DNA from: Choricystis sp. odSpoLacu1
Taxonomy: Eukaryota; Chlorophyta; Trebouxiophyceae
NCBI GenBank assembly: GCA_958009055.1
Contig: OY253653.1
Coordinates: forward strand, 558,001-622,000
Direction of reading: 5' to 3'
Length of the DNA: 64,000 bases
In this document: one piece after another, positions 5,514-57,525 of the stretch
How positions within the stretch are numbered: position 1 is the stretch's first letter
Layout: the number at the start of each line of letters is the position of its first letter
The notes under the pieces: generated by a model
What the model was told of the DNA's origin: nothing
Database searches by the model: none
The model's input: the letters and a program-made list of their open reading frames with translations, nothing else
Position numbers and translations under genes: made by a program

Positions 5514-6543
5514 ATGCGTGCCCTGGGGGCGCGCCGTGTGGCCCCGACGCGCCGCATTGCACCGCCGCGCCGTGCGCCGTCACGGCCGCACCGCCGCGGC
5601 GCACCCTTCCGCGCACGAGAGGGTGAGCGAGATGCGGGTTTTTGTTCGTGCTTGTGAGCACACAGTGTGGGCTGTAGGCGTGCCCACACAACCGGTCTGT
5701 CTTGATTCCCAACCACCTCCCCTCCTCTCCTCCCAACCTCCCCAGCCGACCCAGGCCCCGACGTCGCTGTCTTCCGCTTCACGCTGGGCCTGCCGGGTGT
5801 GGACGACGCCCTCGTGCCCCGCGCCGTGGGCTGGCTCGCCCTGGCTGCGCTGGCCGCCAACCGCTGGTTTTCGCCGGGCGCTGCCACGCCCGGCCAAACC
5901 ATTGCGGAAGGCGTGGCCGCCGCCCTGGCGGCCGCCTGCGTGGCGTTGCCGACTCTGGAGACCGCCCTGGCGGATGCAGCCCCTGGGCGGGGGCGGCGGG
6001 CGGCGGGCGCGGTTCCTGGCTCGGCGTCCCTGTTTCGCGTCGCGCGGCCGCCCACGCTGGCCGACGAGTCCGCCGCCGAGCTGGCGTGGGCATCCTACGC
6101 TCTGCTCCGCAATGCCAACGTGTGCACGGTGGCGGTGGTGGCGTTGCCAGGGGGCAAGGCGTCCCGCCCGCCGACCGCCCTCCTGCTGCGCGGCGCGGCG
6201 CCCGCCGCCCTGGCCACCGCGGCCGACCCGTTGGTGGCGGCGTCTGCGGCTACTGCCGCGTCGCTGGCGCCAGGCAGCGGCAGCGCTCCCGCCTGCGCCG
6301 CGCGCGGGGAGGGGGGGGGGAGCGCCCATCTACCTTCCCGACAGCGTGGACGGCGGCTGGGGCATCCTGCCTTCGGGCGCGGGGTGCGCCCTAATTCAGC
6401 CTGTGCCCCGGCGGCGGGGCGGGGGTGGCGCCCCCCCCGCCGCCCTGCTGGTGGTGGCTGGCGACCGCCCGGGCGCGCTCACGTCGCGCGACCGGGCGTG
6501 GGTGGCGGCGCTGGCGGCCAAGATGGGCGGGGTGTTGGGATAG
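5514..6543 (+). CDS. Cytochrome b6f cofactor-assembly protein, CCB2/CCB4 family (frame broken at a G run)
   Basis: CCB2 and CCB4 help attach haem c-i to cytochrome b6 in the thylakoid membrane. Exons 5514-5622 and 5746-6543. Exon 1 encodes an Arg/Pro-rich leader (MRALGARRVAPTRR) suited to plastid targeting. Exon 2 has hydrophobic helices (GWLALAALAANRWF), then AWASYALLRNANVCTV, YLPDSVDGGWGILP and the C-terminal DRPGALTSRDRAWVAALAAK typical of the family. The frame changes at a run of ten G (6311-6320): removing one G joins ...CAARGEGGG to APIYLPDSVD without a stop, giving about 301 residues. I read this as a sequencing or assembly error rather than a dead gene. CCB2 and CCB4 cannot be separated by eye. 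Confidence 0.7.
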
Positions 6544-6755
6544 ATTGAGACAGGAGGGGAGCTGACCGTGTGTTTTTCAGGGACTGTTTTTTTTTTGTTT
6601 GTGTCTGTCGTGGGCGTGAAAAGCAGGCAAGATGGGGCCGCAAAAAAACACACCAGAGACAAAGAAACGGCTCCCCCCCCTGTCCACCCTCTCCGACAAA
6701 AAACGCCACCACTTGAGCTTGCGACACAGTCTGTGTCCATAGCTGGAGGGCGGGC

Positions 6756-7859
6756 ATGGACGGCAGGTGCGTGTGAGGGGTGTGTGGGGGGGGGGGGGGG
6801 GAGGCGGGGGCGGAATGCGCAGCGCTGTTTCCTCCACCTCTCTGCCCCCTGTTCCACAGACCGCCGGCCGACGCGCCGCTGCAGCAGCGGCGCACGGTGC
6901 TCATCAACTCGACAAGCGCAGGTGAGGAGAGAGGGAGGGCTGCACAGGGAGGGAGGGAGGGCGTTTTGGGCACTGCGCCTGCCCGCGTCGGGAAGAGTAA
7001 CCCCCTTTAAACCTCACTCCCTCCAGCCCTGCTCGAAACCACGGGCGACCCGCCAGGCCTCCCCCCCCACACCATCCTCGTGGCAAAGTGGCTGACTCGG
7101 TCGGATGCAGGCGGCCGAGTCATCCTGCCCCGCGCGCGCGTCGAGGCGTCCCTCCCCTTCATGCTGTCCCACCGAGCCTACACCCTGGCCTCCGCGTCGG
7201 CGACGGCCGCCACCCCCATCACCATCAAGTCGTGGGCCAACGGGTTGGACGCGCGGCGCGTTTACGCGCTGTATGGAGTCGCCCCGCTGCTCAAGGCCGC
7301 GCGCGCGGGGGTGGGCGCGCCCATTGGACTCGCCACCGACGCCGACGGCCGGGTGTGCGTGGTGATCGGATCTGAAGACGCCCGCCTGGCGGCCGCGTTG
7401 GCGGAGGGGGAGAGAGGGCGGCCGGCTGTGAAGAAGGCGCGGCACCCGGCTGCGCCTCTGCCGCCACCACCACCCTCTGACGAGGAAGCGTCGGCCGCGG
7501 CCTGCCTCGTCCGCCTGCAAGGCAAAGGCAATGTCAACTCCCCCTCCCTCACCACCGCCCTGGCGCACGCGGTGGCGGTGGCCGCGGCGCGCGGAGGGCC
7601 CCCCCTGTCGCCGCCGCCGCGCGGGCGCGCGGCGCGGCGCGGACCTCGCCGCGGCCGGGCCGCGCCGCCCGCGGTGACGCCGCCGTGGACGACGCCGGGG
7701 CCACGGGCCGTGGTGGTGGAGGGGCGGGTGTCGTCCCCGTTGGCGCCGCTGCCGCCCGCGCCCGCGTCGCCCGCGCGTGCCGCGGCGACGACGCCGCCGA
7801 CCGAGGGCAAGGCGGCTGGGCGGGCGGCGGTGTGCATCACGGCGACGGCGGCAGTGTAG
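6756..7859 (+). CDS. B3 DNA-binding domain protein (VAL/HSI2-like)
   Basis: Three exons: 6756-6766 (only 11 nt, MDGR), 6860-6921 and 7027-7859. The phases join exactly to give 301 residues. Residues about 30-140 look like a plant B3 domain: ILVAKWLTRSDAGGRVILPR, then VEASLP, SWANGLDARRVYALYGV and GRVCVVIGS. In VAL-type proteins the corresponding pattern is SDAGR..RLVLPK...WPNN..RMYVLEG. The rest is Pro/Ala/Arg-rich and disordered, with an acidic patch (PPSDEEAS). B3 proteins bind DNA in the nucleus, and VAL-class members recruit repressive chromatin factors; that role here is inferred. The very short first exon is supported by phase and a GTGCGTG donor, but an upstream start cannot be excluded. 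Confidence 0.7.
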
Positions 7860-7967
7860 AGAATGTGGAGGGAGAAGTGTTTGTTTCCTGGGTTTGGGTG
7901 GCTCAAAAACGACACTTGAAAATGATTGAAGCAGCAGCACAAAAAAACACCCCTCTCTGCGTGCGGT

Positions 7968-9965
7968 TCACGCACCCTCCTGCGGGCACAGCGCCGCCAC
8001 CACGGCCGCCGCGTCCGCGTCGCCCCCCCCCTTCCCCCAGGTACCGAACCACGGTCACCACCACCTGCAGCGGGACGGGTGCCGCCCCCGCGTCGGAGAG
8101 AGCGGCAGCGAGGGCGGGCGCGTCGACGCGCTCCGCGCGCGTCGCGAGCGCGCGGGACGCCAGCGCGCGCTTCAGCCCCCCCTGCCCGCCACCGCGCCCG
8201 CCAGCGTGGCGACCGCCCCCGGACCATCGGCCAGGGGGTGTCCCCTCCTGGCCATGCGGGTGAGGGTGGCCCCGTCGGCAGCCCCCATGCGGAGCGCGGC
8301 GCCGCGCACGCGCACGCACGCGCCGCAGAAAAAGTCGGGCTCGCTGTAGTGGGTGGTGGAGGAGGACGCGGCCGCACTGGCAGCACCACCCCCTCCACAC
8401 CCCGTGCACGGCAGGCCGGGGGCGGGGCGGGGCGGGGCGCCGCGCGCGGCCGGCAAACCTGCCCCCAGCATGCCCATCCCGCCGCCCCTCCACCACGTCC
8501 ACCGTGCCGTCGGCTGGGTGGTAGCGCAGGGTGAAGGCGCGGTCGGCGTCGCCGTCGGCGGGGGGAGGGGCGCCGGGGGCGGGGACGCGGGTGGCGGCGA
8601 AGCGCAGCGTCACGCCGTCGTCCGAGGGGCGGGGGGCGCGGGATTGGCGCGTCTTGGGCACCAGGCTGGTGCAGGAGCGAGCTGAATCGGCGTCCGACCC
8701 AAACCCGGTGTGCGGGGGGAGGGGTGGAGGGGGGGGGCGGGTGGTGGGCGGCGGCTCGAAGAAGCGAGCCAGCACGCCGCGCGGGTCGTCCGATCCAGGG
8801 GGGGGGGGCGGGGGATCGCCACCCGCCGACGGGAGGCGCCATGGTGTCCCACAGGTGGACGCCGGTGGAGGGCGTGGCGGCGCCGGTGGCGCGCGCGGCG
8901 CGGGCGGCGGTTTTGGCTGGCGGGGTGGTGGAAGGGCGTGCGCGAGGTTCAAAAACCGCGCTCTGGTTGGGGAAGGGCGTGCGTGTGGTTCACCACACGC
9001 ACGCCACACAAAAAACCGCTCTCCCCTCCCCTCCACCCCTCCCCCTCTTTCTCACCTGCCGCCGCCTCACGCTGCGCTCGCTCCCACTTCCCCTCGGGCG
9101 GGGTGGCCGGCGGCCCGGGGTCGGGCTTGCCGGCGCGGGAGAGCCACGCGCGCGTCGCGGCGTCGGCGTCGGTGATCGTGACGGCGCGGCCATAGATGTT
9201 GGTCTGGGCGGGTTGAAAGCGGGTTTAAAAGTGTGGGTTGAGAGTGGTGTGGTGTGCGTGTGTGTGGTGGTGGGAGGGAGGGGCAGAGCGTGGTGTGCTC
9301 GTGTGTGCGCCCGCCCCTCGCCCTCCCCCGCCCCCCTCCCGCCCCCCCCCCCCCCCTTCGCCCCTCGTCGCACCGTCGTCCCCACCGCCACCGCGTCCGC
9401 GGTCAGCGGCACCCCCCCCACCATCAGCGCATGCCGCCTCACCAGCACGCCCTGGTCCAGGCCGGAGTTGGGGGTGCGGGGCTCGAGCAGGGTGGCAGTG
9501 GAGTCGGAGAGGTGCAGCGCGAGCACGACTTTGCGCACACGCCCCTCCCCCTCGGCCGCACACCCGGGCACCGCCTCCCGGAACCAGCCCGCGTAGCGCA
9601 GGGTGACGCCCGCCAGGGTGACGTAAGGCGGGTCGGGGAAAGGGGTGGAGGTTGGGGCAGGGGCAGCGGCGGCAGGCGGCGGCGGCGGCGACGCGGGCGC
9701 CGCGGCGCACGTCGGGGCCGCCGCCCCATCCTTGGACAGGGGCAGCGCGTCGGGGGCGGCTCCACGAGCGGTGGACACGGCGTAGACCAGGGTTTGGGGG
9801 CGTTTGAAGGTGGCGGGCGGGGGCTGGTGGGGAGGTGGGGTGGGAGGTGAGGCTAAAAATAACCCGGCCTTTTGTTCGATCACCATTTTTCGCCACCCCC
9901 TCTCTCCATCTCTCTCTCACCGGCCGCGGGCGCCAGCCGGCCAGGTTGGGCTCGACGGACGCCAT
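7968..9965 (-). CDS. DM10-domain flagellar protein (EFHC1/Rib72-like), several frame breaks
   Basis: EFHC/Rib72 proteins line the lumen of flagellar doublet microtubules. Exons on the minus strand: 9965-9921, 9823-9374, 9203-9056, 8916-8459, 8343-7968. The N-terminus MASVEPNLAGW followed by FKRPQTLVYA matches the family start. DM10 domain 1 runs from YVTLAGVTLRYAGWFREAV through LLEPRTPNSGLDQGVLVRRH to NIYGRAVTITDADAATRAWL. DM10 domain 2 includes GVLARFFEPP, FTLRYHPADGTVDVVEG and EPDFFCGACVRVRGAALRM. Frame breaks occur at an 11-G run (8798-8808) and a 9-C run (8023-8031), each cured by dropping one base, plus one unresolved shift near 8176-8182. The 115-nt intron 8458-8344 starts GTTTGC, which is unusual here. 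Either the assembly is faulty or the gene is decaying. Confidence 0.7.
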
Positions 9966-10217
9966 GGGTGGCGCGCGGGGGGGGCCGCGTGTGCGGCTTT
10001 GGGTGGGAGAGAGAACCGACGAAGAAAGGAGAAGAGAGTGACGAGCAGCGGAAAAACACGCTCTCACACAGCCACACCGCTCTTTGTCTCCACACACACC
10101 GCTCACGTGCCTGTCACACGAGCTCCTGCACACCCTCCACTCTGCCACACGCGAGCCCGCGCGCTACTGCGCCTCCCACTCACAAAGCAATTGACCCCCC
10201 CCCATCAAAACATCGCG

Positions 10218-11259
10218 ATGGCTTCCTCGACGCAGCGCACGCTGACGTCCTTCTTCAAGCGCCCCGCGCCGGCGCGGGACGCGAGCCTGTCCCCACGCAA
10301 GCGGCCGGTGAGTGGCGGGAGGGGGGTGGGGAGTGCGTGAGAGGAGAGCGTCCGAAATGCGTCCCCCCCCCGCCGACCGCCCCGACACTCCGAAACCGAC
10401 CCACCCACCCTCCAGGCCACCACCGCCGCCGTCGCCACCACACCCTCCGCGCCGGCCTCGCCTCAGCGTCAACCCACGCCTCCCGCCTGCCCCCACGACC
10501 GCGCCGCCGCGGCCGCCGCCGCGGCAGCCGCCACCGCGGCCGCGACCGCGGCCGTCGACGCCGCGCGCGCCGCGTCCCACCCTCCCCGCTTCACCGACCT
10601 GCTCGTCGACCCATCCTGGAAGCCGGCTCTGGCACGCACCCTCACCCCCACCCTGCAAACCTTCATGGAGCGCGAATGGGCGACCGCGCGCGTGTTCCCG
10701 CCCCCCCCCTACATTTTTCGCGCGCTCAACGAGGTGCCCCTGCCCTGCGTGCGCGTCGTCATCATTGGGCAGGACCCGTACCACGGGCCAGGGCAGGCGG
10801 AGGGGCTGTCCTTTTCGGTGCCGCCAGGCGTGCCGCCCCCCCCCCTCCCTGCGCAACATCCACAAAGAGCTGGCCTCTGATGTTGGCGCCGGCATGCCTT
10901 CCCACGGCTCCCTCACCAAGTGGGTGCGTCAGGGCGTGCTGCTGCTCAACGCGACGCTGACTGTGAGGAGTGGGGCCGCCAACTCGCACGCGGGCAAAGG
11001 GTGGGACGCTGTCACCGACGCCGCCGTCGCCGCCATCGCCGCCCGGGAGACGCCCGCCGTCTTCCTGCTGTGGGGCAAGTTTGCGGAGAAGAAGGCGGCC
11101 CGCGTGGACAGGCGCAAGCACGCCGTACTGACCGCGCCCCACCCGTCGGGCCTGTCGGCGCACCGCGGCTTTTTTAGGTGCGCACACTTTTCGCAGGCCA
11201 ATGCGGCGCTGGTGGAGAGAGGCATGGAACCGATTGACTGGGACCTGAGCAAGCCGTAG
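10218..11259 (+). CDS. UNG: Uracil-DNA glycosylase, nuclear type with PIP box (frame broken at a C run)
   Basis: Removes uracil from DNA at the start of base excision repair. Exons 10218-10307 and 10416-11259. The first residues, [13 protein letters not shown], form a PCNA-interacting peptide (Q..L..FF), as in nuclear UNG2. A low-complexity Ala/Pro linker follows. The catalytic core has [20 protein letters not shown] with the water-activating Asp, LLLNATLTV, and [12 protein letters not shown] with the catalytic His. The stop is at 11257-11259. A run of ten C (10836-10845) shifts the frame between [12 protein letters not shown] and SLRNIHKEL; removing one C restores the family sequence, giving about 310 residues. 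It is head-to-head with the DM10 gene across about 250 bp. Confidence 0.9.
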
Positions 11260-11357: not shown

Positions 11358-12413
11358 ATGTCCATCCTGCACTCCCTCGCAGGCGGCTGGGCCGAGATAC
11401 TGGATGAACCCACGCCACGCGCGCGCGCCGCGCGCGCGGTGCGCACCACTGCGATTGTCCTCACCCATTTGGCCGGCCAAGCGGCCCTCACGCCCTACGC
11501 GGTGCGCTGTCTGGCGTTGAGAGCCAGTTTGCCCACCATGACACCGAGTGGTGGGGCTGGATCGGCGTCGCCACCACCCGCGCGCGTCGCGCTCGCGCGG
11601 GGGGTGCGGTATGGAGCGTCTCCTCGTGCGACTGCTGACGTGTACTCTCCCCCAACGGCTGGCAGGGACACAAAAACGCCGCTTCCACCCGTCACCCTGC
11701 TCGTGCACGGCGGCACGTGGTCCGCGGGGGAGGCGTGGCACATGGCCCCCGCGGCCGCCGTGCTCGCGTCGGCCGGCGTCGTCACCGCTGCTCTAAACTA
11801 CTCCCTCTGGCCGGCCGCCTCGATCCCGGATGCCGTGGCCGACGTGAGGGCCGCCCTGGCGTGGGCGAGGTCGCCCGCCGGGGCGGCGGTGCATGGGGGG
11901 GATCCAGAGCGTGTCTCTCTCGCCGGGCACTCTGCGGGTGGACACCTCGCCCTCGCCGCCGCCCTGGCGGAGGCCGACCCCCCCCCCGTCGTCGCGCTGG
12001 CGGGCGTGTTTGACTTGAGGGCTCACTACGCGTATGAAGCGGGGCGTGGGGTGCACCGGCTGTCAACGATGGCACGCGCGGCACTCGGGCGGGGGGGGCC
12101 GCCGCCGCCGATATCTGCCGACAAGGCGGTGGCGGCGGCGCTGGAGGCAGCGTCACCCTTGACCACTCTGCGCACCGCGCGGCGTCTCCCGCCCCGCGTG
12201 CTTCTTGTGGGCGGCGCCCGAGACACCGTCGTCCCCGCGTCTCAGTCGTCCGATTTCGCGGCCGCCCTGCGCACCGCGGGGGCCCTTAACGTGACCCACA
12301 TCACCGCCGCCGCCGAGCACGCCGACTTTGTGACGGCGTGGGGTGGTTTGGGGCGGACGGACCGGGCGCCGGCGGGGTGGGGGGAGGCGGTGGTGCGGTT
12401 TGTGTGCCAGTGA
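11358..12413 (+). CDS. Alpha/beta hydrolase, carboxylesterase resembling isoprenylcysteine methylesterase
   Basis: Single-exon 351-residue alpha/beta hydrolase. The oxyanion-hole motif HGGTWSAGEAW lies near residue 118, the nucleophile elbow GHSAGGHLALAAAL near 195, and the acid and base region GGARDTVVPASQS and AAEHADFVTAW near 285 and 320. The motif set HGG..W..G, GHSAGG and HADF is that of BD-FAE or prenylcysteine methylesterase-like enzymes. An N-terminal segment (IVLTHLAGQAALTPYAV) could be a membrane anchor. The substrate is unknown; ICME-like demethylation of prenylated proteins is one possibility. A run of ten C near 11978-11987 is in frame here, unlike most long G/C runs in the window. 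The start at 11358 follows CCACACC. Confidence 0.75.
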   Translation: MSILHSLAGGWAEILDEPTPRARAARAVRTTAIVLTHLAGQAALTPYAVRCLALRASLPTMTPSGGAGSASPPPARVALARGVRYGASPRATADVYSPPTAGRDTKTPLPPVTLLVHGGTWSAGEAWHMAPAAAVLASAGVVTAALNYSLWPAASIPDAVADVRAALAWARSPAGAAVHGGDPERVSLAGHSAGGHLALAAALAEADPPPVVALAGVFDLRAHYAYEAGRGVHRLSTMARAALGRGGPPPPISADKAVAAALEAASPLTTLRTARRLPPRVLLVGGARDTVVPASQSSDFAAALRTAGALNVTHITAAAEHADFVTAWGGLGRTDRAPAGWGEAVVRFVCQ

Positions 12414-12612: not shown

Positions 12613-12613
12613 G

Positions 12614-14262: not shown

Positions 14263-14885
14263 ATGCATCGCGTGATCACCTCCGAGGGCTCATCTATGCT
14301 TCTGGCAGCGACGAGCGTGCGTGCGCTGCGCACGCTTGTCGACGAGGTGCGAGAGATGGCACTTGGCCAGGGCTCCGTCTCTGCGCCCCCGCCCCCCGCT
14401 CTGCCCCGCGGGAAACAGACCATATCACACCCGACACGACCATCCTCAACCCCACCACACAGGCGCTCGCATCGTCGTCTCCGGCCGGTCGTCCCCGCAC
14501 CTACGTCCGCCTGCTCGCGGCCGGCCGCGAACTGAGCGACGCCCACCCCCTGCCCCCCCCCTCCGTCACGCTGCATGCTGTGCTGTCCCACAAGCCCCCC
14601 CCCCGGTTTGTCGGGGGGCGGGGGCGGGGTGGGCGCTCCCTGGGGCCGGGTGTGGCGGCGGTGGCACTCGGCGCTTCTGCCGGCGCGGCCGCCGCCGCCC
14701 TGGCCCGCGGCTCGCCCGCCGCGCCAGGGTTGTGCTGTGCCGTGTTTTGCTTTCTGTGTGCGTTTATTCCAAAACTGCTGTTCGCGCCCGCGGTGCAGGC
14801 GCCGTGCTCGCCGCCTCGGGCGCCTGGCGCGGTGTGGCGGCGCCACGTGCCACCCCGGCTGCACGCGCCCGTGATGGCTGGCTAG
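14263..14885 (+). CDS. Ubiquitin-like membrane protein (DSC3/TMUB-like)
   Basis: Exons 14263-14346 and 14463-14885, phase 0, giving 168 residues. The first half resembles a ubiquitin fold: MLLAATSVRALRTLVDEAL, then YVRLLAAGRELSDAHPL and SVTLHAVLSHKPPP, the R.L.AGR.L.D......HAV pattern of Ubl domains. The C-terminal half has two hydrophobic stretches (PGVAAVALGASAGAAAAALA and LCCAVFCFLCAFIPKLLFAP) that could be membrane spans. A Ubl domain followed by two C-terminal spans is the layout of Dsc3/TMUB proteins, which work with membrane ubiquitin ligases. That role is inferred from architecture only. The proposed donor GTGCGA lies in GAGGTGCGAGAG; reading through instead loses the Ubl pattern. Confidence 0.55.
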
Positions 14886-18347: not shown

Positions 18348-20121
18348 TCACTTGACCTCGCCCTCCTCCTCCTCATCCGACGACGGCGGCCTCGCCCCCT
18401 CCTCCCGCGGCGACCGCCGCCGCGCGCCGGTTTCGCCGTCATCGCGCGACCTTGACCTGTGGTCGCGGCTCCCCCCCCGCGACCTGCGCGCGGGCGACCG
18501 CGACCGCCGGCGCGGGGAGCGGGACCGGTCCCGACTGCGCCGGGAGCGCCAGCCGTAGTCGTCGTCCCGGCCGCCGCGGGCGCGGTCGTCCCTCCACGGC
18601 GCGCGGTCGCGGTCGCCGTAAAAGTCGCGGGGCGGGGGCGGGGGTCCTCCCCTCCGATCAAACGACGGCGGCCCACCCCAGGGGGGCGGCGGCCCACCCC
18701 AGGGAGGGGGAGGGCCTCCCCACGTGGGCGGGGGCGGTCCACCCCACGGCGGCGGCGGGCCGCCACCACCACCACCACCCATCATCATCATCGCTCCTTT
18801 CGGCAATGGCGGCAGCCCCGCCCGCCGCCGCTTGACCGCGTTCCTCGGCTCCTTGGCCACCCTCCCCTCGCCCCCTTTGCCGCCACCCAGGCGGGTCGGG
18901 CGCCAGTCGCGCACTGTCCTCCCCCTCTCCACATCCACCACGAGACGCCTCCCGCCCAGCCTCCGCCCGTCGCCATGCTTGTAGGCGGCCTTCATGTCGG
19001 ACGCGTGGTCGTACTCGATGAATGCGTAGCCGCGGGAGGTGTCGGTGGTTGACGCTTTAACCAGCACCACTTTTGAAATGGGGCCATACTCCTCAAACTC
19101 GCGCCTCAGGTCCCGCTCCGTCGCGTCCCGGGGCAGGCGCCCAACGAATAGTGTTTTGAAGGCGTCGGCCGTGGCGGAGGCGTTGGAGGAAGGGTCGTAA
19201 TCGGCGGCCGCCGCGTCGCGCGCGCGCGCGCGCCGGCCGCGCGCTTTTCCTCGGCCGCGGCCGCTACCCTCTCCAGCGGGGTCAACGCGTCCAACCGAGC
19301 CTGGAACGCGTACTCTGCATTATGCAGGCGGCGGGGGGAGGCCGGCACGCCCGGCGGGCGGGGGGGGCAGTGTTCGCCGTCGCCCGGGGACGCAAACTCG
19401 GACACGTGGCCCCCGATCCCGCTCCACCCCACCCTCGCGGTGCGCTTGCGGACAGGGGGCGCGTACGGCAGCGGGTCCCTAGGCTTGAACAGGGGGGCGA
19501 GGCGGGGGGGGAGGCCGGTGGAGGGGAAGAGAGAGCCCTCAACCTGCGGGGTGGGGGGCGGCGGCGGGCCGCCATACCCGGGCGGCGGCGGCCCCCCACC
19601 AAACGGAGGCCTAGCCTGCCAGCCGGGGTTGAAGCCGGGCGCCGGCGGAAAGTAGCCGGGCGGCGGCGCTCCTGGCAGCGGCTGCACAGGCGGCGGCGGG
19701 CCAGGCAGCGGCGCATCAGCAGCCCCGCCGCCCGGCGGCCCCGGGCTGGGCGGGTCCGGCAGCTCGGCCGCCTCTGCCGCGGGTGGCGGCGGCCCGGGAG
19801 GCGGCGGCGGCAGGGGCAGGTCGTGCGGTGGGGGCGGGGCTGCCAGTGGCGGCGGCGACGCGGCGGGGGACGCCGACCTGTGTGTGTGGGGTGGGAGTAT
19901 GGAGGTTATGGTGTGAGTGTTTAGGGTTGTGCGGAGCAGGCGCCGGTCCCGGTCCCGGTCCCGGTCCCGGTCCCCCCGGGGCGACGGGGGGACCGGGGGG
20001 CGTTCGATCGGCAGAGGAAAAAAAAAACACGTGCGACGGGGGGTCGTCCCTCTCCCGGTGCCACACACGCACTCGCGCGGCACAGTGTGTGCGTGCTCTG
20101 CACACACTCTCACACTCACAT
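18348..20121 (-). CDS. SNRNP70: U1 snRNP 70 kDa protein (U1-70K), start codon split by an intron
   Basis: Binds U1 snRNA stem-loop I and takes part in 5' splice-site recognition. The coding part is 20121-20120 (AT) plus 19877-18348. The donor CACGAT|GTGAGT and acceptor CACAG|GTCGGC join as ATG TCG, so the intron splits the start codon. An unusual Pro/Gly-rich extension of about 117 residues precedes the family N-terminus [18 protein letters not shown]. The RRM has RNP2 TLFVGRLPR and RNP1 RGYAFIEY. After the RRM come [18 protein letters not shown], repeats of WGGPPPP, and an RS/RD-rich tail ending DEEEEGEVK. The frame shifts inside a CG dinucleotide run (19217-19233); removing one CG unit joins ARARA to the [20 protein letters not shown] segment. 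Confidence 0.88.
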
Positions 20122-29566: not shown

Positions 29567-29592
29567 GGGGGGGGGGGGGGGGGGGGGGGGGG
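29567..29592. repeat. Run of 26 G
   Basis: An uninterrupted poly-G tract next to the assembly gap. It is the longest homopolymer in the window. Runs of this length are hard to sequence and could fold as a G-quadruplex; it probably contributed to the assembly break. Confidence 0.95.
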
Positions 29593-29644: not shown

Positions 29645-29844
29645 NNNNNNNNNNNNNNNNNNNNNNNNNNNNNNNNNNNNNNNNNNNNNNNNNNNNNNNN
29701 NNNNNNNNNNNNNNNNNNNNNNNNNNNNNNNNNNNNNNNNNNNNNNNNNNNNNNNNNNNNNNNNNNNNNNNNNNNNNNNNNNNNNNNNNNNNNNNNNNNN
29801 NNNNNNNNNNNNNNNNNNNNNNNNNNNNNNNNNNNNNNNNNNNN
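29645..29844. other. Assembly gap (200 N)
   Basis: Exactly 200 unknown bases, the usual placeholder for a gap of unknown size. It interrupts the small minus-strand gene that begins at 30157. Confidence 0.98.
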
Positions 29845-34396: not shown

Positions 34397-35158
34397 TCGC
34401 GGCTGCCCAGGGCGCCGACATCTAATTCAGCGGAAGTGGTCGCAGCACGCGCCAGCACGGCCCGCAGCCTCGCTGCACGCACCGCGAACACGTCGTCGGT
34501 CATGCAGGGGGTGGCGCCATCCAGGGAGGGGGGGAGGTGCAGGCCTGGGACGGTGGCGAGGTCTGCCCAGGCGCGGCACCCCGCGACCGCCTTGACCGCG
34601 GCAGGCGGCAACACCACGGGCTGCCGCAACTCGAACGCGCGCACCTCCACCAGGGTGATGGGCTTGCCTTCATGCCCCTTCAGCCGGGCCGCGACGCCCG
34701 CGTCGGACAGACGGTGGAAGGGGCGCGTCGCGGTCGCCACGCTCGCCGCGTCGGCGACGACCCACGCGCCCGTGACTTCGGCTGCAATCGTCAGGGTGAG
34801 GCCTCCATCGAGGGTGGTGGCGAGCGTCATGGCTGCCGCATGGGCGGTCGCCACCTCGTCCTCCACGCCCGCTGTGTCGGCGTGGTGCGACGTCGGCAGC
34901 AGCAGGAAGCGGGGGGTCTCAATGATGAACCCGGCCCTGTCCCGCACCCCGCCCCGGCGCAGCAGCACGGTGGATTCGCCTGACGCCAGGGCCGCACAGA
35001 GGATGGCCCACTCTTTGAGGGCGAGGGGGGGGGAGGGCGTGGTGGGTGGGTGGTGTGGTTGCGAGCGGGTTGGCGCGTGGGGGCTGTCGCCGAGCCCTGG
35101 GAGTTGCCAGAGATGGGTGGGACGGCACCGCCGGTCGGAGGGTGCCGAGAGGGCGCAT
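34390..35158 (-). CDS. DUF1802 family protein, plastid-type (frame broken at a G run)
   Basis: DUF1802 proteins are found in cyanobacteria and plastid-bearing organisms; their activity is unknown. The core begins LALKEWAILCAALASGESTV, then LLRRGGVRDRAGF and ETPRFLLLPTSHHADT, the family signature ALKEWA...G....LLRKGGI......F......RF.L.PT. The upstream ATG (35158) starts MRPLGTLRPAVPSHPSLATP, an acid-free leader suitable for plastid import, in another frame. A run of nine G on the plus strand (35025-35033) lies exactly between them; removing one base joins the leader to LALKEWA and yields about 255 residues. An intron instead of an error is possible but no good splice pair was seen. Confidence 0.75.
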
Positions 35159-37455: not shown

Positions 37456-38730
37456 ATGGTGCGCCAGTGTTGGCGGGACGCGGCCGTGTGCCGCGGCCCC
37501 CCCTTCTCGAATTGTCATTTCGCTCACCTCCCTCTCTCCCTCCCCCTCCTCCCCGCAGTCGGTGCGCGCCAACGGCGGCGCGCGCCGTGGCGCCGTGTCA
37601 GGGGGCAAGGTGCGTGAGTGGAAGGCGCAAAAGTGTGTGTGTGTGTGCAGAGCTGGCGCCAAAGCAACCGCTGGAAATGGCGCGGTTCACCCCCCTCTTC
37701 CTCCCTCCCCAGCGCTCGCGTTCCTCCCAGTTCCTCGACTCCCTGGTGGACGACTTTGACTGGCATGACGCTGGCGCGTGGGCGCCCAGCCTGTTGCCAG
37801 GTACGTTGGAAAGCAGGCGCAAATGCTGGCGCGCGCCACGGGGGGGAAAACGGGCGCGGCGTCGCGCGGTGGCGTGTTTTGGCGTGCTGCCGCCTGTGTG
37901 CGCTGCCCTCTTTTCTGCGCGCACACTGTGGCGCGCTGGGTAGAGGGGACATATACCCACTCATTGACGGCGGCAGGGTGTGCGTGCAGGCGGAATGGGG
38001 GGCGGCGCGGCGGCCCCAGATTCAGAGCCATCCCTGCGCGCGCCTGGCGCCAAAACCGCGCGCCCCCCCCAAAACAGTCAACTCACACACGCCCTCCCCT
38101 TTTCTTCCCCTCCCACAGGCGGCTTCAAATCCCTGAAGTCGCGCTGGTTGTGCGAGTACGAGCGCGAGCAGGCGGAACGCCCCCGCGGCCGCGGCCGCGG
38201 CGGTGGCGCCACCGCGTCCGAGTCTGCGCGCGACTCGTCGGGCGGCGCCCCTCCCCGCCGCGGCCGCCCGTCCGGCTCCCGCGTCGGCGGGCGGGGCGGA
38301 TCCGCCGCCGATGGCCGCCCCCGAGACCGCGCGCGGGAGCGGGGGGGGGACCTGGCGCTGGCGTTGGCGCCGCGCGCCGCCCCCCGCGCGCCGCGCGCCC
38401 GCGCCCGTGTCTGTGCTGCCTCCTGGAGGCCGTGGCGCTCCCGCCGAGCTGTGCACGCTGGACTTGGCCCGCTTCAGTAGCGCGGCCGACCTTTGGGACG
38501 CGGCCCACGCGGCGGTGGCGGCTGCGTCGGCACCCGCGCCGACCGACGGTGACGCCACTCCCCCCGCCGACCCGCCGCCTCCACCCCCTCCACCCCCGCC
38601 CCCCGCCCCGCCCGGCCTGCGCCTCATCTACCAGGACGCGGCGGGCGACCTGCTGCTACTGACGGCGGCGGAGGCGTGGGGGCGGCTGGTGAGCTCGGCG
38701 AGGCGGGTGGTGTTGCTGCCCGACGCGTGA
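37456..38730 (+). CDS. PB1-domain protein resembling the AUX/IAA C-terminal domain (frame broken at a G run)
   Basis: Exons 37456-37458 (ATG alone), 37559-37609, 37713-37800 and 38119-38730, all phases consistent. The early part reads SRSSQFLDSLVDDFDWHDAG then GGFKSLKSRWLCEYEREQAE, followed by a long Arg/Gly/Pro-rich disordered stretch. The C-terminal 110 residues look like a PB1 fold: ELCTLDLARFSSAADLWDAA, then a proline run, LRLIYQDAAGDLLLLTAAEA and RLVSSARRVVLLPD, where YQD.AGD..LL is the acidic OPCA-like motif found in AUX/IAA and ARF proteins. A nine-G run (38341-38349) shifts the frame; dropping one base links the parts. No DNA-binding domain was identified, so auxin-like signalling is not claimed. 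Confidence 0.6.
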
Positions 38731-39133: not shown

Positions 39134-39169
<36 letters not shown>

Positions 39170-40135
39170 GGTGGAGGTGGCGGCGCTGACGGCGGCGCCG
39201 ACGCCAGCGGTGGCGCCGCCACGGGCGGCAGCGACATGCGCGGAGTGGGCGCCGCCACGCTGGCAGAGGGAGGCGGCAGCGATGCAGTAGGCCCAAAGCC
39301 ACTGGCTGGCGGCGTGGGCACGACCACGCTCAAGGGTGGAGACGGCGCACCACCGCTCGCCAGCGGTGGCGGCGGCAGCGCGCGCGGCGGCCCCGCCTCG
39401 TCCACCGCCAGCGCGGCTCCATCCCGCGACCAGGCGGCCACGCACACGGCGGCAGTGACCACGACCACGCGGTCGCGTCCCCCGCCGCCGCCCCGCCGCA
39501 GGATGGGAGCACCGTCGAGGAGCAGCGCCGCACCGTCACCCGCGCACCCGCGCCGCGCGAGGGACGCGTCCACCACGCCCGCCACGCGGCCGCCCGCCGC
39601 GTCCGTCAGCATGACGGACGCGGAACCGGTGGCGGTGGGGGCGGAGGCGGCGACCAAGGCGGCAACACGAGCGGTGCGGCAGGGCGGTTTGGATCGCGCG
39701 ACAGACGCCAGCCCCCCCGCGGGCGCAACGCCATCCTCCCGCCAGCCCGCGGCTGCCATGGCTGCCCGCCACCCGGGGGCCGAGTATGCGGCATCCCCGG
39801 GGCCAGGAGCCAGGGCCAGAGGCCCCGCGCCCGCCCCCACAACCCCATCCTCCTCCGCCGACGGCGCCCGGGCGCGCAGGTCGGCCGCAACCGCGGCCAC
39901 CGGGCCCGGCAGGCGCCTGTCCAGGCCGGCAGGCAGTGGCAGCGCCAGCGCGGTGGAGGCGGGCGGTTGGGAGGGGTGCAGGGCGGCGCGCTTCGCGGCC
40001 GGCGGCGGGGCCAGGGGCGCGGGAGGCGGCCGCTTGTCCAGGAGAGAGAGGGAGGGCGCTGGCTGCGTCTCCTCGTCATCCAGCTCCAGGGCGGACGCGT
40101 CGTCGAGGGTGGGGGGGGGGCGCGGAGGAGGCCAT
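39058..40135 (-). CDS. HROB-like OB-fold recombination protein (frame broken at a G run)
   Basis: HROB (MCM8-interacting OB-fold protein) loads or stimulates the MCM8-9 helicase in homologous recombination. The start MASSAPPP (ATG 40135 in CCAAGATGG) runs into ten C on the minus strand (plus 40111-40120, G); dropping one base continues as TLDDASALELDDEETQPAPS and gives about 358 residues. The OB-fold part is ARVAALVAASAPTATGSASV, MLTDAAGGRVAGVVDASLAR, GAALLLDGAPILRRGGG and DRVVVVTAAVCVAAW, which follows the HROB domain order of strand, DxxG turn, strand and L.G..L.L. A long poly-Pro tract and acidic end GELMDCGLWTPPDAA follow. The identification is by pattern, not alignment. Confidence 0.65.
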
Positions 40136-43303: not shown

Positions 43304-45236
43304 TCAATTGGACCACACGTGCACGCACCCGTCCGCTCCCCCCGTGATGACGGCGCCGGAGTCTTCATCGTAGAAGAGGGCGGTCACGCTGTCGAGGGCT
43401 GCGGCCGCGCGCGCGTCGCCGCTGGTCGCCGCGTCGGCTGCCGTCAGGCGGGCGATGGTGGCGCCGGAGGCGACGTGTGACACGGTGATGGCGCCCACGG
43501 TGGGGTCGGGGGGGGGAGGGGTGGATGCATCGTCCGCAGCGTCGTCGCCGGGGGGGGTGCGCGGCGGCGACGGCGGCGACGGCGACCGCTCCCCCCCCTT
43601 GCCTGGGGCAGTCACACGCCCATACGACACCACGTACTGTTGGTCAGCGGTGACGTAGACGGAGTTGGCGGCGGGGCCGCCGGGTGAGGCGGGGGCGGCC
43701 AGGGCCACGCCAGCCAAGTCCGCCCCTCTGACGCCGCGCCCGTCCAGCACGGCGGCCGACCCGTCCCGCCCAAACGCCAGGCAGCGGCGGGCGTCGTGCA
43801 GGAAGATGAAGGCGGAGGGAGGGGGCAGGCGCGGGTGGGAGGGGGGGGGCGGGGGACGCGGCGCCAGTCGCGACGTCGACCAGCGTGAGCGAGGGAGGGC
43901 CGGGGGAGGCACCACCGCACGCCACCGCTCCTGCGGGCGACGCCCCCACCAGCAGGCTGCCCGCAAACAGCTCGATGAAGTCGACGCGGGCGCCGGGAGG
44001 AATTGGGGCGTCAAATGAAGCCAGAGGAGAACCGTCGGCGATCGACACGAGGCGGCACGGGACACGTGCGCCAACGTCACCACCACCACCACTCCCACCA
44101 CCATGCGAGTCGCCCACCAGCAGCAGGACGCCGGGCGCGGTCCTCACCTCGCGCACACCGTCGCCGGGCACGGTGAACCTCGGGGCGTAGGTGGACAGAT
44201 CCGTTATGTTGTACCGCCCTTCGTCCGCGTCCGCCGCGATGGCCACCCCGTTGACATCGTCAAACTCGACAAATCCCGGCCAGCGGAGACCAGCGCCACC
44301 GAAGAGGGGGCGGGCGGTGGGGGGTGGGGTGGTGGGAGTGGCGGCAGCAATTGCACTCAACGACACGGCGCTGCACCTGAGCGCGCCATACCCATCCCGC
44401 CTCGACACCGCCACCGTGACGACGTCGCCGGCAGCCCTATTCACAAACAGGGAGCGGACGACGGTGTCGGGGGCGTCGTTGAGGTGACAGAGCAGGGCGC
44501 CAGTCGCGGCGTTGAACGCGGCCGCGCCGCCTGCCGCCGTCAGCGCCAGCAGGCAGCCGCCCGCGGCCGCCACTTCAACCACGCGGGACCGTTTGCGGGC
44601 CCAGTGAGGGGAGGTGGCGTCGGAAGGAGGGGCTGCTGCGTCCAGGGAGGTTGTCAGGTGCAAGCGGGCAAAGCGAGCCGCGCGCAGGGCTGCCCGTGCA
44701 GACGGCGACGGCCGCCCTGCCGCACGGTCGGCCAAGGCGGCGGGGAAAGGGTGGGAGGGTGGCGTGGGTGGTGGCCGGCGTGGCGCCAAGACGCGGTGGG
44801 TGGTGAGGGAGGTGGCTGGGTGTGAGGGAAGCGAGGGGAGAGCGTTAGCGTTTTGACACGCGGCATGTCCCTCCCTTTCCGCTGCCGCCCCTGCACCACG
44901 CCAGCTGCCAGCTGCGTCCACCACCCCCACACGCGGTGGCACATGACACCCAGGGCTGCGCGTGGCCCGAGTGTGGGGACGGGGCGACAGGCGGGCGGCG
45001 GGGGGCGGGGGCGGAACGATCGGTGTGCGCGCGCAGGGACGCGGGGAGGCGCTGCTTGCTGATGTGGCGCGAGGGCGGCCGCGCCCCCACGCACAGACGG
45101 GGGGCGCCTCTCCTTTCCTGCCCCCGCCTGGATGCATGGTGTGATAATGGCGACCTCGTGGCGGCGTCGCCTCTCCGCCCCACTCACCGGGTGGCGGGCT
45201 GGCGCACGCGCCATTCGGAGGCGCGTCGGTTTCCAT
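43304..45236 (-). CDS. Conserved plant-type WD40/transducin-like protein (frame broken at a G run)
   Basis: Proposed exons 45236-45188 (METDAPPNGACASPP) and 44815-43304, joined in phase across 372 nt, long for this genome, so a middle exon may be missed. The beta-propeller-like body contains TVVRSLFVNRAAGDVVTVAV, LRWPGFVEFDDVNGVAIAAD, RVDFIELFAGSLLV, PPSAFIFLHDARRCLAFGR, NSVYVTADQQYVVSYGR and the C-terminus VTALFYDEDSGAVITGGADG, CVHVWSN. I recall plant proteins with LKWPGFVEFDDVNGK and a TGNRHGLVHVWSN end, some with an F-box; no F-box was identified here. A nine-G run (43841-43849) shifts the frame and one base must go. The function is unknown. Confidence 0.72.
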
Positions 45237-51316: not shown

Positions 51317-52817
51317 TCACGAGGTGGGGCGCCCGCGCCAGAACACGGCCAGCCCCGACCCACCCAGCGCCATGAAGACGACGGACACGGCGGACGGGAC
51401 GCACACCAGGGGGTCTGAGAAGTGGGCCTGGGCCAGGAGGAAGCCGAGGGCGGCGGACTGCATGCCGGTCTCGATGGACACGGTGCGCGCGGTCTTCTCG
51501 TTGAAGCCCAGGCCGCGAGACAGGAAGTAGCCCAGGGAGAAGGCCGCCACGTGCAGCAACGCGACGGGGCCCGCCAGGTTCAGGCCTTGCTGTTTCAGGA
51601 TGTCGGCCACCTGGGCGCAGGGTGAGGCGCAGAGGAGGGTGGTGAGGGCGACGCCGACGAGCGGCAGGAACGCCTTGATCTTCTGAACGGCTTTGGGGAA
51701 GCACTCGTTGGCCAGCACGCCCAGCAGGGTGGGCACGAGCACGACTTGGAAGGTGGACAGGGCGAGGCCGGCGGCGTCGACGGGGACGAGGGGGCCGGCC
51801 AGCAGTTTGGTGAGGAGGGGGGTCATGACGATGGCGCCCAGCGTGGACGCCGTCGTCATCAACACAGAGAGCGCCACGTCCCCGTTGGCGATGTAGGTGG
51901 CCACGTTGGAGGCTTGGCCACCCGGGCAGCAGGACACGAGGATGAGGCCGACGGCGAGGGGGGGGGGGAGGGCCAGGGCTTTGGCGATCGCAAACCCGAG
52001 GAGCGGCTTCACGATGTATTGGGCGAGGTAGCCCACCCCGATCGGGACCGGGTTCTTCAGGCACTGGCGGAAGTCGTCCACCGTCAGCGTCAACCCCATG
52101 GACAGCATCAGGAAGCCGAGCGAGTAGGTGAACAGGTCGGTCTTGAACCAGGCGAAGGCTTGGGGCTGCGTGATGCCGAGGGCGGCGCCCGCGCACACCC
52201 ACACCGGGAAGAGGGTGGTCAGCGTCTCCGTGAACTTTTCCAGGGAGGTCGGGGGGGCGAGGGAGCCGCCGGCAGCGGCCGGGGGGGTGGGGAGGCTGGT
52301 GCGGGGGTGGGTGAGGGGGACGAGTGGTGGTGAGAGCGAGCGGCGTCCAGGCGCGGCTCACGCGATTGGGGGAGAGGGCGGGGGACAGCGCGCGCAGACC
52401 CGAGAGGCGCGTGCCTTGTTTCCTCCTTTTTCCCCCACTCTAACAGGCTCGCTGCACAGTGGCGCGCGCCGTGTGAGTGGCACGGCGCGAGCGTGGAGGA
52501 GGACGCGGGGAGACAGAAACCAAGGACCGCCGCGCGACGGCACCAGCGGGATCTCGCCCTTTGCCCCCCGCCCGCCTCCGACCACGCTCCTGCCACCTCC
52601 CCCTTTTGCCACAGCACGACGCCTGTCAAGGTTGGCACTCAAAGCCCCCAATCCCCCCACACACTCACCGAACCGGGGCGGTGAGGACGGGCAGGCCAAC
52701 AACCGGCGCGCGCACAGGCGCGAGCGCGGGAGCGCGGCGGGCGGGGGCGGGGGCGCGCGCGCGCAGGGGGGCGCGCGCGGCCAGGGCCGGAGTGCGGATG
52801 GTGCGGGCGGCCTGCAT
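51317..52817 (-). CDS. BASS2: BASS2-type plastid carrier (sodium/pyruvate cotransporter-like)
   Basis: Bile-acid:sodium symporter family member of the plastid envelope; BASS2 of plants imports pyruvate with sodium. Exons 52817-52669 and 52295-51317, 375 residues. Exon 1 is an Arg/Ala/Pro-rich transit peptide ([20 protein letters not shown]). Exon 2 has about nine spans with the family motifs [98 protein letters not shown] and [13 protein letters not shown]. The close match to remembered plant BASS2 sequence supports the subgroup; substrate is inferred. The intron (373 nt) is long for this window. An 11-G run at 51958-51968 is in frame here. Confidence 0.9.
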
Positions 52818-54322: not shown

Positions 54323-54413
54323 AAGAAGGGAGTGTAGAATTTGTTTTCCGCCTAAAAATGAACAAAACAAATAAAAAACACGTCCTTTGCTCCGCACCCA
54401 ATTCTCTCCAAAG

Positions 54414-55651: not shown

Positions 55652-56009
55652 TGTGTGTCGAGGGGAGAGGGTCTAGGAGGTCTAGGAGGTCGAGGCGGGT
55701 GTGCCACGCCCCAGAAGAGGGGTGTTTGGAGGTGTGGAGAAAGAGGAATTGCAGGCCGCCGACAGAGACACCAGTTCAGACTGCCAAACTCGCCTCTCAA
55801 TCCCCCACCCTTCTCTGTTTTTGTCTGCGGGGGCAACGGGTGTGCGTCTGCAGCTCCCCGCGTGGTCGGTGCGGGGCCGCTCTCTCCCACTCCTGCCTGT
55901 CTACACCGCAGCCACACCGCGCGCGCCCCCAGCGCTCTGCGCTGCGCGCCGCCGTCCCCGACCGCCCGAATTGCCGTCCGGACCTCCTCCCCCCTCCCCT
56001 CCTCCCCAA
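55652..56009. promoter_or_regulatory. Divergent promoter region
   Basis: About 360 bp between the CdsA and PRP4 start codons. It includes a short tandem TCTAGGAGG repeat (55674-55691) next to the minus-strand start and a pyrimidine-rich stretch before the plus-strand start. No other site was recognised. Confidence 0.45.
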
Positions 56010-57525
56010 ATGGACCCGCCACGCCCTCCAACCCACTATGGTGCACCAGGCCACATCCCTCAAGCGGGCCAGCCCCCGCCACCCGCGTCCACAACCCTGC
56101 CCCACACCGCGGCCGCGGCCGCCGCGCGCGCCGCCGCAGACGCGGTCGCCGCCACCGTCGCCTCCCGCCAGCGGGCGCGCGCGGTGCCGGTGCCCACCGA
56201 GGACGGCGTGGTGAGGAAGCTGCTGCGCCGGCTGGCGTTGCCGGTGACCCTGTTTGGCGAGCGCGAACCTGAGCGGCGGGGCCGCCTGCGCGACGCGCTC
56301 GCCGCCGTGGACCCCGACGCTGCAGCGTCCCTGGTGGCGGCCGACTCGGTGGATGGCGCGGTGGCGATGGATGCGGGGGGGGGGGGGCGCACCGCCGCCC
56401 GCCGCGCCGCGCGGCGAGCGCTTCTTCACGGAGGGCCCCCCCGCCCTGGCGCCCGCGCGCACCGCCATCGCCGAGTTTTCTTTGGCGCGAGCGTCCGCCC
56501 GCCTGGTCGCCGAGCGCGCAGACCGCGCGTCGGGCGCCTGTGGGGGGAGGGACGCGGCCGCGGTGACCCTCGCGCGCGCGTCCGCCCTCCTCACCTCTGA
56601 AGTCGGCGACGGCCGCCCCCTGGCCGCCGCCTCGTTTTCAGCAGACGGCGCCGCCCTCGCCACCGGCGGCTGGAGCGGGGGCGTCCGCCTGTGGGCGTGC
56701 GCCGGTGGCGAGTGCAAGGCGGGCGCGCTGCTGCGCGGCCACACAGACCGAGTCACGGGCGCCGCCTGGCGCCCAGGCGTGGCCGCCACCGACACGGCCT
56801 CGCCCGCCGCCGCCCTGGCCACGGGCGGCGTGGACCGCGCGCTCAGGCTGTGGAGTGCAGGGGGGGCACCACGGTCCACCCTCACCGGCCACACAGACCG
56901 CCTGGCCCGCGTCGCCTGGCACCCGGCCGGCGCCCACGTGGCGACCGCATCCTTTGACGGCACGTGGCGCCTGTGGGACGCGGAGGCGGGGGCGTGCCTG
57001 GTCGAGCAGGAGGGGCATGGGGGGGGGGTCTATTCTGTGACTTTCCACCCCGATGGTTCCCTCGCTCTGACAGGCGGCCTGGACGGCCACGCCCTGGTGT
57101 GGGACCTGCGCACGGGGAGGACTGCGCTCGCCCTGTCGGGGCACGCGGGCGGCGTGCTGGGGGTGGCCGCCTCGCCGTGCGGGTTTGTTGTTGCCACGGC
57201 CTCTGACGACGCGACCGCCCGCCTGTGGGACCTGCGCGCCCGGGACGCCACCGCCACGCTGCCCGGGCACACAGGCCTGGTGTCGTCCGTCACATTCTGT
57301 GGCCCCGGGGGAGGAGTGCTGGCGTCGGCAGGGTACGATGGCGGCGTGCGGTTGTGGTCGCGCGCCGACGGCACGCTCGCGCGCGCGCTGGATGGAGGCG
57401 GCGGCCGCCTGGGCGACGTGGCCGCGTGCCCGGAGCCGCCTGGAGGGGCGCAGGGCGGCCTGCTGCTGGCGACGGCGGGGCATGATCGCACGGTCAAGCT
57501 GTGGGGAGGCGTGGCGGCGGCGTGA
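56010..57525 (+). CDS. PRPF4: PRP4, WD40 protein of the U4/U6 snRNP (frame broken at a G run)
   Basis: Component of the U4/U6.U5 tri-snRNP. Single exon with one frame break. The N-terminus is MDPPRPPTHYGAPGHIPQAG; the SFM (splicing factor motif) domain follows as VVRKLLRRLALPVTLFGERE, PERRGRLRDAL, which is diagnostic for PRP4. After a helical linker (ERFFTEGPPAL) seven WD repeats run to the end, for example ASFSADGAALATGGWSGGVR, HTDRLARVAWHPAGAHVATA, LALTGGLDGHALVWDLRTGR, GVAASPCGFVVATASDDATA and LATAGHDRTVKLW. A run of 13 G (56375-56387) separates the two frames; removing one base gives 504 residues, the normal size. Confidence 0.92.

What the first reader, a model, noticed from the sequence alone, without database searches (positions are those of the whole stretch)
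6311..56387. Ten long G/C runs in coding regions each break the frame, always by one extra base
In nine otherwise intact genes the reading frame changes exactly at a G or C run of 9 to 13: CCB2/4 (6311-6320), DM10 protein (8798-8808 and 8023-8031), UDG (10836-10845), SecY (30658-30667), DUF1802 (35025-35033), PB1 protein (38341-38349), HROB-like (40111-40120), WD protein (43841-43849) and PRP4 (56375-56387). Every break is cured by removing one base (or adding two); none needs one base added. Chance alone would not favour one direction ten times. U1-70K has a similar break in a CG repeat, cured by removing one CG unit. Two long runs are in frame (11978-11987 and 51958-51968). Most likely this is a biased over-call in the assembly; slippage during transcription or translation is the exotic alternative.
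Basis: partly seen in the sequence, partly recalled or inferred. Interest (0 to 1): 0.78.

Follow-up and report, generated by a model that had tools for sequence, protein, structure and literature searches.

The report
Assembly over-counts long G/C repeats
In what is likely the genome of a sponge-dwelling green alga, seven long runs of G or C and one CG repeat inside genes are written one repeat unit longer than the reading frame fits, which is likely a sequencing and assembly error rather than biology and would make normal genes look broken.

Summary
Real pattern, ordinary cause. The window is C5:558001-622000 of a 14.59 Mb, 19-contig assembly whose contig number and lengths match ucChoSpea1.1 (Choricystis sp. 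from Spongilla lacustris): PacBio HiFi only, 16x, no polishing step reported. A codon-model frame test confirms one base too many at 7 of the 10 listed runs, leaves 2 undecided (35025, 38341) and puts 1 (40111) in the opposite class, perhaps wrongly. Over 314 kb, decided G/C runs of 9 or more are 33 in frame, 20 one too many, 4 one too few, 110 undecided. In 264 kb the estimated share with one too many is 17% at 9, 54% at 11 and 69% at 12-13. CG repeats of 13 nt or more: 6 of 6 decided are one CG unit too long; at 10-12 nt 59 of 61 are in frame. The common rule is one repeat unit too many, whether the unit is one base or two. A +1 ribosomal shift cannot do that, and in-frame runs of equal length exist. 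The only UDG-family gene found needs one C fewer to fit its family. Over-call is the best reading (0.86), untested by reads; Illumina Hi-C and RNA-seq of the same specimen would settle it.

The parts
6311..6320 (+). G10 in the CCB2/CCB4 gene; one base too many
   Evidence: Frame test 7.2 nats. Pfam PF11152 is split between two frames (23.4 and 47.3 bits) and is one 73.1-bit hit over profile 2-195 when read through.
8023..8031 (-). C9 (G in the mRNA) near the 3' end of the DM10 gene; one base too many
   Evidence: Frame test 5.5 nats; few codons remain downstream.
8798..8808 (-). G11 (C in the mRNA) in the DM10 gene; one base too many
   Evidence: Frame test 4.5 nats; DM10 matches lie on either side of the run, at about 8424-8616 and 9370-9624.
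10836..10845 (+). C10 in the only uracil-DNA glycosylase gene found; one base too many
   Evidence: Frame test 7.3 nats. With nine C the protein aligns without a gap to 3zoq and, at the run, to 12 of 13 relatives (P0006 has one more residue). Only UDG-family hit in the genome.
19217..19233 (-). CG repeat of 17 nt in U1-70K; one CG unit too many
   Evidence: Frame test 7.3 nats for removing 2. U1snRNP70_N rises from 31.5 bits (profile 2-48) to 40.8 bits (2-92) when read through.
30658..30667 (-). G10 (C in the mRNA) in a SecY gene; one base too many
   Evidence: Frame test 7.6 nats. PF00344 stops at the run (profile 280) and reaches 305 of 306, 94.4 bits, when a trimmed read-through is scanned.
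35025..35033 (-). G9 just 5' of the DUF1802 domain; frame undecided
   Evidence: Frame test 0.0 nats. The DUF1802 match starts at about 35022.
38341..38349 (+).
   Evidence: Frame test 0.7 nats for in frame. HMM path changes frame at 38382-38384. No Pfam hit in the three frames scanned.
40111..40120 (-).
   Evidence: HMM calls the one-too-few class by 4.4 nats. The one-too-many reading also fits if the ATG 8 codons upstream is the start.
43841..43849 (-). G9 (C in the mRNA) in a DUF7899/WD gene; one base too many
   Evidence: Frame test 6.5 nats. PF25463 split 167.9 + 54.8 bits, 223.2 bits when a trimmed read-through is scanned.
56375..56387 (+). G13 in PRP4; one base too many
   Evidence: Frame test 5.3 nats. 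PRP4 motif in one frame and WD40 repeats in the next. Intact relative P0121: 55% identity, 94% query coverage as listed.
10701..10709 (+).
   Evidence: Frame test 6.3 nats for in frame.
14595..14604 (+).
   Evidence: 5.1 and 8.1 nats for in frame.
11978..11987 (+).
   Evidence: 8.2 nats.
51958..51968 (-).
   Evidence: 7.5 nats.
29645..29844 (.). 200-N gap, which looks like a scaffolding gap
   Evidence: The matching assembly was scaffolded with YaHS; the paper sections read do not give its gap length, and that 200 N is a YaHS default is recalled.

Best explanation
Seven G/C runs of 9 to 13 bases and one CG repeat in these genes are written one repeat unit longer than the reading frame fits, and this is likely a length-dependent over-call in an unpolished PacBio HiFi assembly, not a feature of the living cell. 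Shown here: the breaks, their direction, their rise with length at 9 bases and above, and the same one-unit excess at CG dinucleotide repeats. Inferred: during consensus the reads, or the few that set the consensus at about 16x coverage, carry one unit too many at long G/C-only repeats, and no other read type corrected it. The k-mer quality score (QV 51.1) would not see this if the reads themselves carry it. The real genes would then be intact, with runs one unit shorter.
For: (1) Length dependence over 314 kb, in frame: one too many: one too few: length 6 186:6:0; 7 60:0:3; 8 51:3:2; 9 19:2:1; 10 8:4:1; 11 4:6:0; 12 1:5:0; 13 0:3:1; 14 or more 1:0:1. (2) Direction at 9 or more: 20 against 4, two-sided sign test p = 0.0015 (17 against 4, p = 0.007, in the 264 kb); pseudo-sites 16 against 12. 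(3) CG repeats: 10-12 nt 59 in frame of 61 decided; 13 nt or more, 6 of 6 decided are one CG unit too long, 9 undecided. One mechanism that counts units explains both; translation does not count units. (4) Reading the broken frames through joins split Pfam domains: CCB 73.1 against 47.3 and 23.4 bits; DUF7899 223.2 against 167.9 and 54.8; SecY 94.4 against 71.6; UDG 58.9 against 41.7 (some read-throughs were trimmed to the domain). (5) The only UDG-family gene found aligns without a gap to 3zoq with exactly one C fewer. (6) No room for introns: at six of the seven runs the HMM coding segments lie 6-31 nt apart. (7) Assembly match: total 14,593,115 bases, 19 contigs, C5 1,219,714, C1 1,515,297, C2 1,428,307 against 16 chromosomes (1.52, 1.43 ... 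1.22 Mb), one further scaffold and two organelles. The paper reports HiFi 16x, hifiasm and YaHS, and mentions no polishing step. [quoted passage not shown]
Against: I have no reads. HiFi is usually accurate, and PMC10612404 (passages) found hifiasm error-correction rates only slightly raised in homopolymers in CHM13. In my searches I found no paper that documents an over-call direction for G/C runs in HiFi. The rise with length is not smooth below 9: the mixture fit gives one-too-few 6.0% at length 7 and 6.5% at length 8, more than one-too-many (0% and 2.8%), and one-too-many 2.3% and 3.5% at lengths 5 and 6. Among C runs the one-too-many sites more often begin at codon position 2 (10 of 13) than in-frame runs of 9 or more (5 of 21; Fisher p = 0.004, uncorrected), which a pure read error would not predict. 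Most runs (110 of 167 at length 9 or more) are undecided. The HMM was trained on the same DNA that it tests.
Confidence: 0.86

Rival explanations
1. The extra units are real in the DNA, and the cell removes them from the mRNA by RNA-polymerase slippage or RNA editing, as reported for poly-T in Oikopleura dioica mitochondria.
For: Basic genes are affected (UDG, only family hit; SecY, PRP4, U1-70K). A precedent exists: PMC11384890 and PMC12004063 (passages). One-unit trimming at both mono- and dinucleotide repeats would fit slippage.
Against: Runs of equal length are in frame elsewhere (at 9 or more: 33 in frame against 20 broken; at 10 8:4, at 11 4:6). A trimming machine would break those unless it is stochastic or site-specific. 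The matched assembly gives a simpler route to error.
Confidence: 0.04
2. Programmed +1 ribosomal frameshifting at GGG-G or CCC-C, by a four-base-reading tRNA or by loss of m1G37.
For: Homopolymer breaks are mostly the one-too-many class. C-run breaks favour one codon phase.
Against: CG repeats need the other frame class (two bases removed) at 6 of 6 decided sites of 13 nt or more, which +1 shifting cannot cure. In-frame runs of equal length exist. A TRM5-type methyltransferase domain is present over cut-off, though matched only over profile 1-101 of 164. The tRNA genes themselves could not be read.
Confidence: 0.01
3. The DNA really carries the extra units in the sequenced cells, as slippage mutations or mixed alleles in a symbiont population, for example after weakened mismatch repair.
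For: Unit expansion and length dependence are also typical of replication slippage (recalled). The sample is alga from one laboratory-grown sponge.
Against: Seven MutS_V hits over cut-off in open frames of 308-1199 aa. Breaks in UDG, SecY, PRP4 and U1-70K at once would be expected to be harmful. About 23 separate breaks in 264 kb are hard to square with a viable genome (inference).
Confidence: 0.06
4. The frame changes come from short introns, misplaced frames or errors of the codon model.
For: A few sites are ambiguous (35025, 38341, 40111). Background calls occur at 28 of 1426 decided pseudo-sites. At lengths 7 and 8 the one-too-few class is as common as the other.
Against: 6-31 nt between coding segments leaves no room for an intron at six of the seven runs. 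Split domains join when read through. One-too-many against in-frame is 15:12 at length 10 or more and 7:250 at 6-8 (Fisher p = 7e-13).
Confidence: 0.03

Closest known systems
Residual homopolymer and dinucleotide indel errors in long-read assemblies before short-read polishing (PMC13174521, PMC11429912, PMC12746033; passages read)
   Same: Errors sit in homopolymers and short repeats, can cause frameshifts, and are poorly seen by k-mer QV.
   Different: Here the errors in G/C-only repeats go mostly one way (one unit too many). The passages I read do not state a direction.
Poly-T insertions in Oikopleura dioica mitochondrial genes, trimmed in the transcriptome (PMC11384890, passages)
   Same: Homopolymers interrupt coding frames in the DNA record.
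   Different: That case is mitochondrial, in T runs, and backed by RNA data. Here it is nuclear, in G/C runs and CG repeats, with no RNA data and with in-frame runs of equal length.
Frameshift suppression at GGGG or CCCC by four-base-reading tRNAs or m1G37 loss (recalled, not looked up)
   Same: A +1 shift at G or C runs.
   Different: It does not cover CG repeats, which need the other frame class.

Membership tests
Long-read assembly repeat-length error | Error rate rises with repeat length | tested here: met
   One-too-many share (mixture fit, 264 kb): length 8 3%, 9 17%, 10 30%, 11 54%, 12-13 69%; pseudo-sites 0.8%. Not smooth below 9: 2.3% at 5, 3.5% at 6, 0% at 7, and one-too-few 6.0% at 7 and 6.5% at 8.
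Long-read assembly repeat-length error | Affects repeats by unit, mono- and dinucleotide alike | tested here: met
   CG repeats of 13 nt or more: 6 of 6 decided (9 undecided) are one CG unit too long.
Long-read assembly repeat-length error | Assembly from long reads without short-read polishing | tested here: met
Long-read assembly repeat-length error | Accurate reads show a different length from the consensus | not testable with these tools
   No read data available.
Programmed +1 ribosomal frameshifting | All sites need the same +1 shift | tested here: not met
   CG repeats need two bases removed.
Programmed +1 ribosomal frameshifting | Fixed codon phase at the slip site | tested here: inconclusive
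   C runs: codon position 2 in 10 of 13 one-too-many sites against 5 of 21 in-frame sites, p = 0.004 uncorrected; G runs: codon position 3 in 3 of 4 against 6 of 7.
Homopolymer RNA editing or slippage (Oikopleura-like) | mRNA differs from the DNA at the runs | not testable with these tools
   No RNA reads; the paper lists PolyA RNA-Seq ERR12708738.
Replication-slippage instability (mismatch-repair loss) | Mismatch-repair genes missing | tested here: not met
   Seven MutS_V matches over cut-off; MLH genes not tested.

The most novel reading that the evidence does not exclude
The written DNA is right: a nuclear genome carries one repeat unit too many in a large share of long G/C runs and CG repeats, and the cell cures the frame by trimming one unit in the mRNA, a unit-counting nuclear analogue of Oikopleura homopolymer editing.
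Probability: 0.03. Interest if true: 0.9.

Novelty: not a real feature. Interest (0 to 1): 0.2.

Why it matters
If the over-call reading is right, roughly one coding break per 11-12 kb of sequence (about 23 separate breaks in 264 kb) would mislead gene prediction and pseudogene counts for this alga, although the reported QV is 51.1. The same bias may sit in other GC-rich genomes assembled the same way. It also suggests a cheap check: in GC-rich coding sequence, count the frame class at G/C runs and CG repeats by length.

Tried and rejected
A flank-only frame test with 90-base windows left most runs undecided; it was replaced by the neutralised-run HMM test. Looking for a conspecific sequence that would show the true run length: among the best 120 of 7999 UDG hits the top two have 70% and 76% identity; of 80 PRP4 hits the best has 55%, and P0164 has 77% over only 19% of the query; so I found none. 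P0012 was left out of the UDG alignment of 13 relatives. Looking for near-identical duplicates of a run within the held DNA: two alignments, none of 150 bases or more. tRNA test for four-base decoding: no tRNA in the window by ARAGORN; 61 tRNA matches genome-wide among 63 scored candidates, but their DNA could not be read. Literature on a HiFi over-call direction: not found; a paper on repeat-length accuracy that PMC12769509 cites was not held. One search for Choricystis with frameshift listed one paper, on another alga (listing only). Passages only were seen of PMC11471861, PMC10612404, PMC12746033, PMC12769509, PMC11429912, PMC13174521, PMC12004063, PMC11384890 and PMC12263367; of PMC12141999 the abstract, outline and sections 6 and 9. 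Introns were rejected at six of the seven confirmed runs because there is no room. Double counting: c76734 and c76814 may be one break, as may neighbouring CG repeats at c150704/150720, c155695/155709 and L007:727/754; the 20 and the 6 of 6 are counts of sites, and the six CG sites of 13 nt or more lie at separate loci. One 8-nt CG repeat scored one unit too long (that in L007) and two 8-nt ones scored one unit too short.
Full report
What was checked. The ten runs exist as described. To test frames without relying on homology I trained a seven-state codon HMM (noncoding, three forward and three reverse codon positions) on the window and on 200 kb of the same chromosome (C5:1-200000); it calls about 65% of the sequence coding. 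For each run I then made the run itself neutral and compared the likelihood of its 450-base flanks with one base removed, unchanged, or one base added. The model was trained on the same DNA.

Result in the window. Seven of the ten listed runs carry one base too many by 4.5 to 7.6 nats: 6311, 8023, 8798, 10836, 30658, 43841 and 56375. 35025 and 38341 are undecided.

Homology. Reading through with one base fewer joins split domains: CCB2/CCB4 73.1 bits against 47.3 and 23.4; DUF7899 223.2 against 167.9 and 54.8; SecY 94.4 against 71.6; UDG 58.9 against 41.7 (the SecY, UDG and DUF7899 read-throughs were trimmed). The UDG protein with nine C aligns without a gap to a solved uracil-DNA glycosylase (3zoq) and, at the run, to 12 of 13 green-algal and metagenomic relatives; P0006 has one residue more there. 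UDG is the only family hit in the genome. For U1-70K one CG unit fewer completes the U1snRNP70_N domain (2-92 of 92, 40.8 bits, against 2-48, 31.5 bits). PRP4 has its PRP4 motif in one frame and its WD40 repeats in the next, and an intact relative matches the read-through (55% identity, 94% coverage as listed).

Is it general? With 49.7 kb from other chromosomes added (15 loci; L001, L036 and L038, which overlap the window, were dropped), the decided G/C runs of nine or more are 33 in frame, 20 with one base too many and 4 with one too few; 110 are undecided. They split as 8:7:1 in the window, 20:10:3 in C5:1-200000 and 5:3:0 on other chromosomes. By length the in-frame: too-many counts are 186:6 (6), 60:0 (7), 51:3 (8), 19:2 (9), 8:4 (10), 4:6 (11), 1:5 (12), 0:3 (13), 1:0 (14 or more). 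Without any threshold, a mixture fit on the 264 kb gives 3% at length 8, 17% at 9, 30% at 10, 54% at 11 and 69% at 12-13, against 0.8% at pseudo-sites. Below 9 the picture is not clean: one-too-many is 2.3% and 3.5% at lengths 5 and 6, and one-too-few is 6.0% and 6.5% at 7 and 8. At 10 or more the direction holds at thresholds from 2 to 6 nats (22:6, 21:3, 18:3, 14:2, 11:2). A/T runs of nine or more were never decided in the 264 kb, so nothing can be said about them.

The decisive contrast. CG dinucleotide repeats behave alike in unit terms: of 10-12 nt, 59 in frame and 2 one unit too long; of 13 nt or more, 0 in frame and 6 one CG unit too long, with 9 undecided. Other dinucleotide repeats of 11 nt or more were never decided. 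A ribosomal +1 shift would cure the homopolymers but not the CG repeats. What the two share is one repeat unit too many above a length threshold, which is how a repeat is counted, not how it is translated.

Where the sequence comes from. The window is C5:558001-622000 of a genome of 14,593,115 bases in 19 contigs. Contig lengths (1.515, 1.428, 1.225, 1.220, 0.840, 0.833, 0.730, 0.684, 0.675 Mb) and number match ucChoSpea1.1, Choricystis sp. from Spongilla lacustris (PMC12141999, sections 6 and 9 read). That assembly is HiFi only for its bases, 16x for the alga, hifiasm and YaHS, with no polishing step mentioned, QV 51.1. About 23 separate breaks in 264 kb (16 homopolymer sites of nine or more, counting c76734 and c76814 as one, and 7 CG loci; one or a few of these may be background calls) correspond to about 9 errors per 100 kb of sequence, roughly ten times what QV 51.1 implies. 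This is possible if reads share the error, because k-mer QV then does not see it; PMC13174521 (passages) says so for long homopolymers.

Mechanism. The most likely account is length-dependent over-counting of G/C-only repeats in HiFi consensus that was never corrected with another read type. Shown: breaks, direction, length dependence at 9 and above, unit rule, and the match to a HiFi-only assembly. Inferred: that the reads carry the error and that the cell's DNA is one unit shorter.

Against this reading. HiFi is usually accurate, and one study found hifiasm error correction only slightly worse in homopolymers (PMC10612404, passages). I found no paper giving this direction for G/C runs. Among C runs, broken sites favour one codon phase (10 of 13 against 5 of 21, p = 0.004, uncorrected), which I cannot explain and which needs more sites; in a small logistic model on C runs of 8 or more the phase term adds 3.5 log-likelihood units beyond length.

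Rivals. mRNA trimming of real extra units would have to spare in-frame runs of the same length. Real slippage mutations would disable many basic genes at once, and mismatch-repair MutS genes are present. Four-base decoding fails on the CG repeats, and a TRM5-type domain is present.

Verdict. A real and fairly clean technical signature, most likely not a biological feature; of practical use for anyone annotating this genome.

Noticed in passing
window 29567-29592 and 29645-29844: A 26-base G run lies about 50 bases before the only N gap of the window (200 N), as if the G-rich stretch ended the contig.
   Followed up: no
C5 sites listed: C runs with one base too many begin at codon position 2 more often (10 of 13) than in-frame C runs of 9 or more (5 of 21). 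Unexplained; small sample.
   Followed up: partly
window 8177-8183 and 8385-8402: In the DM10 gene the HMM path changes frame twice more at places without a G/C run of 8 or more; one lies near a CG repeat at 8441-8448 that scores as one unit too short.
   Followed up: no
   Followed up: partly
L037 1484-1494 (C2, TRM5-type methyltransferase): An 11-C run just upstream of the domain match leans to one base too many (3.5 nats, below threshold).
   Followed up: no
L024 6697-6716 and L025 2047-2059 (C5:156697-156716 and 162047-162059): Runs of 20 and 13 G fall in the one-too-few class, which equals two too many; perhaps a double over-call.
   Followed up: no
264 kb, G/C runs of 7 and 8: A small excess of the one-too-few class (6.0% and 6.5% in the mixture fit), opposite to the longer runs. 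Unexplained.
   Followed up: no
L009 1-300 (C5 start): The contig begins with degenerate CCCTAA telomere-like repeats, so C5 probably reaches a chromosome end.
   Followed up: no
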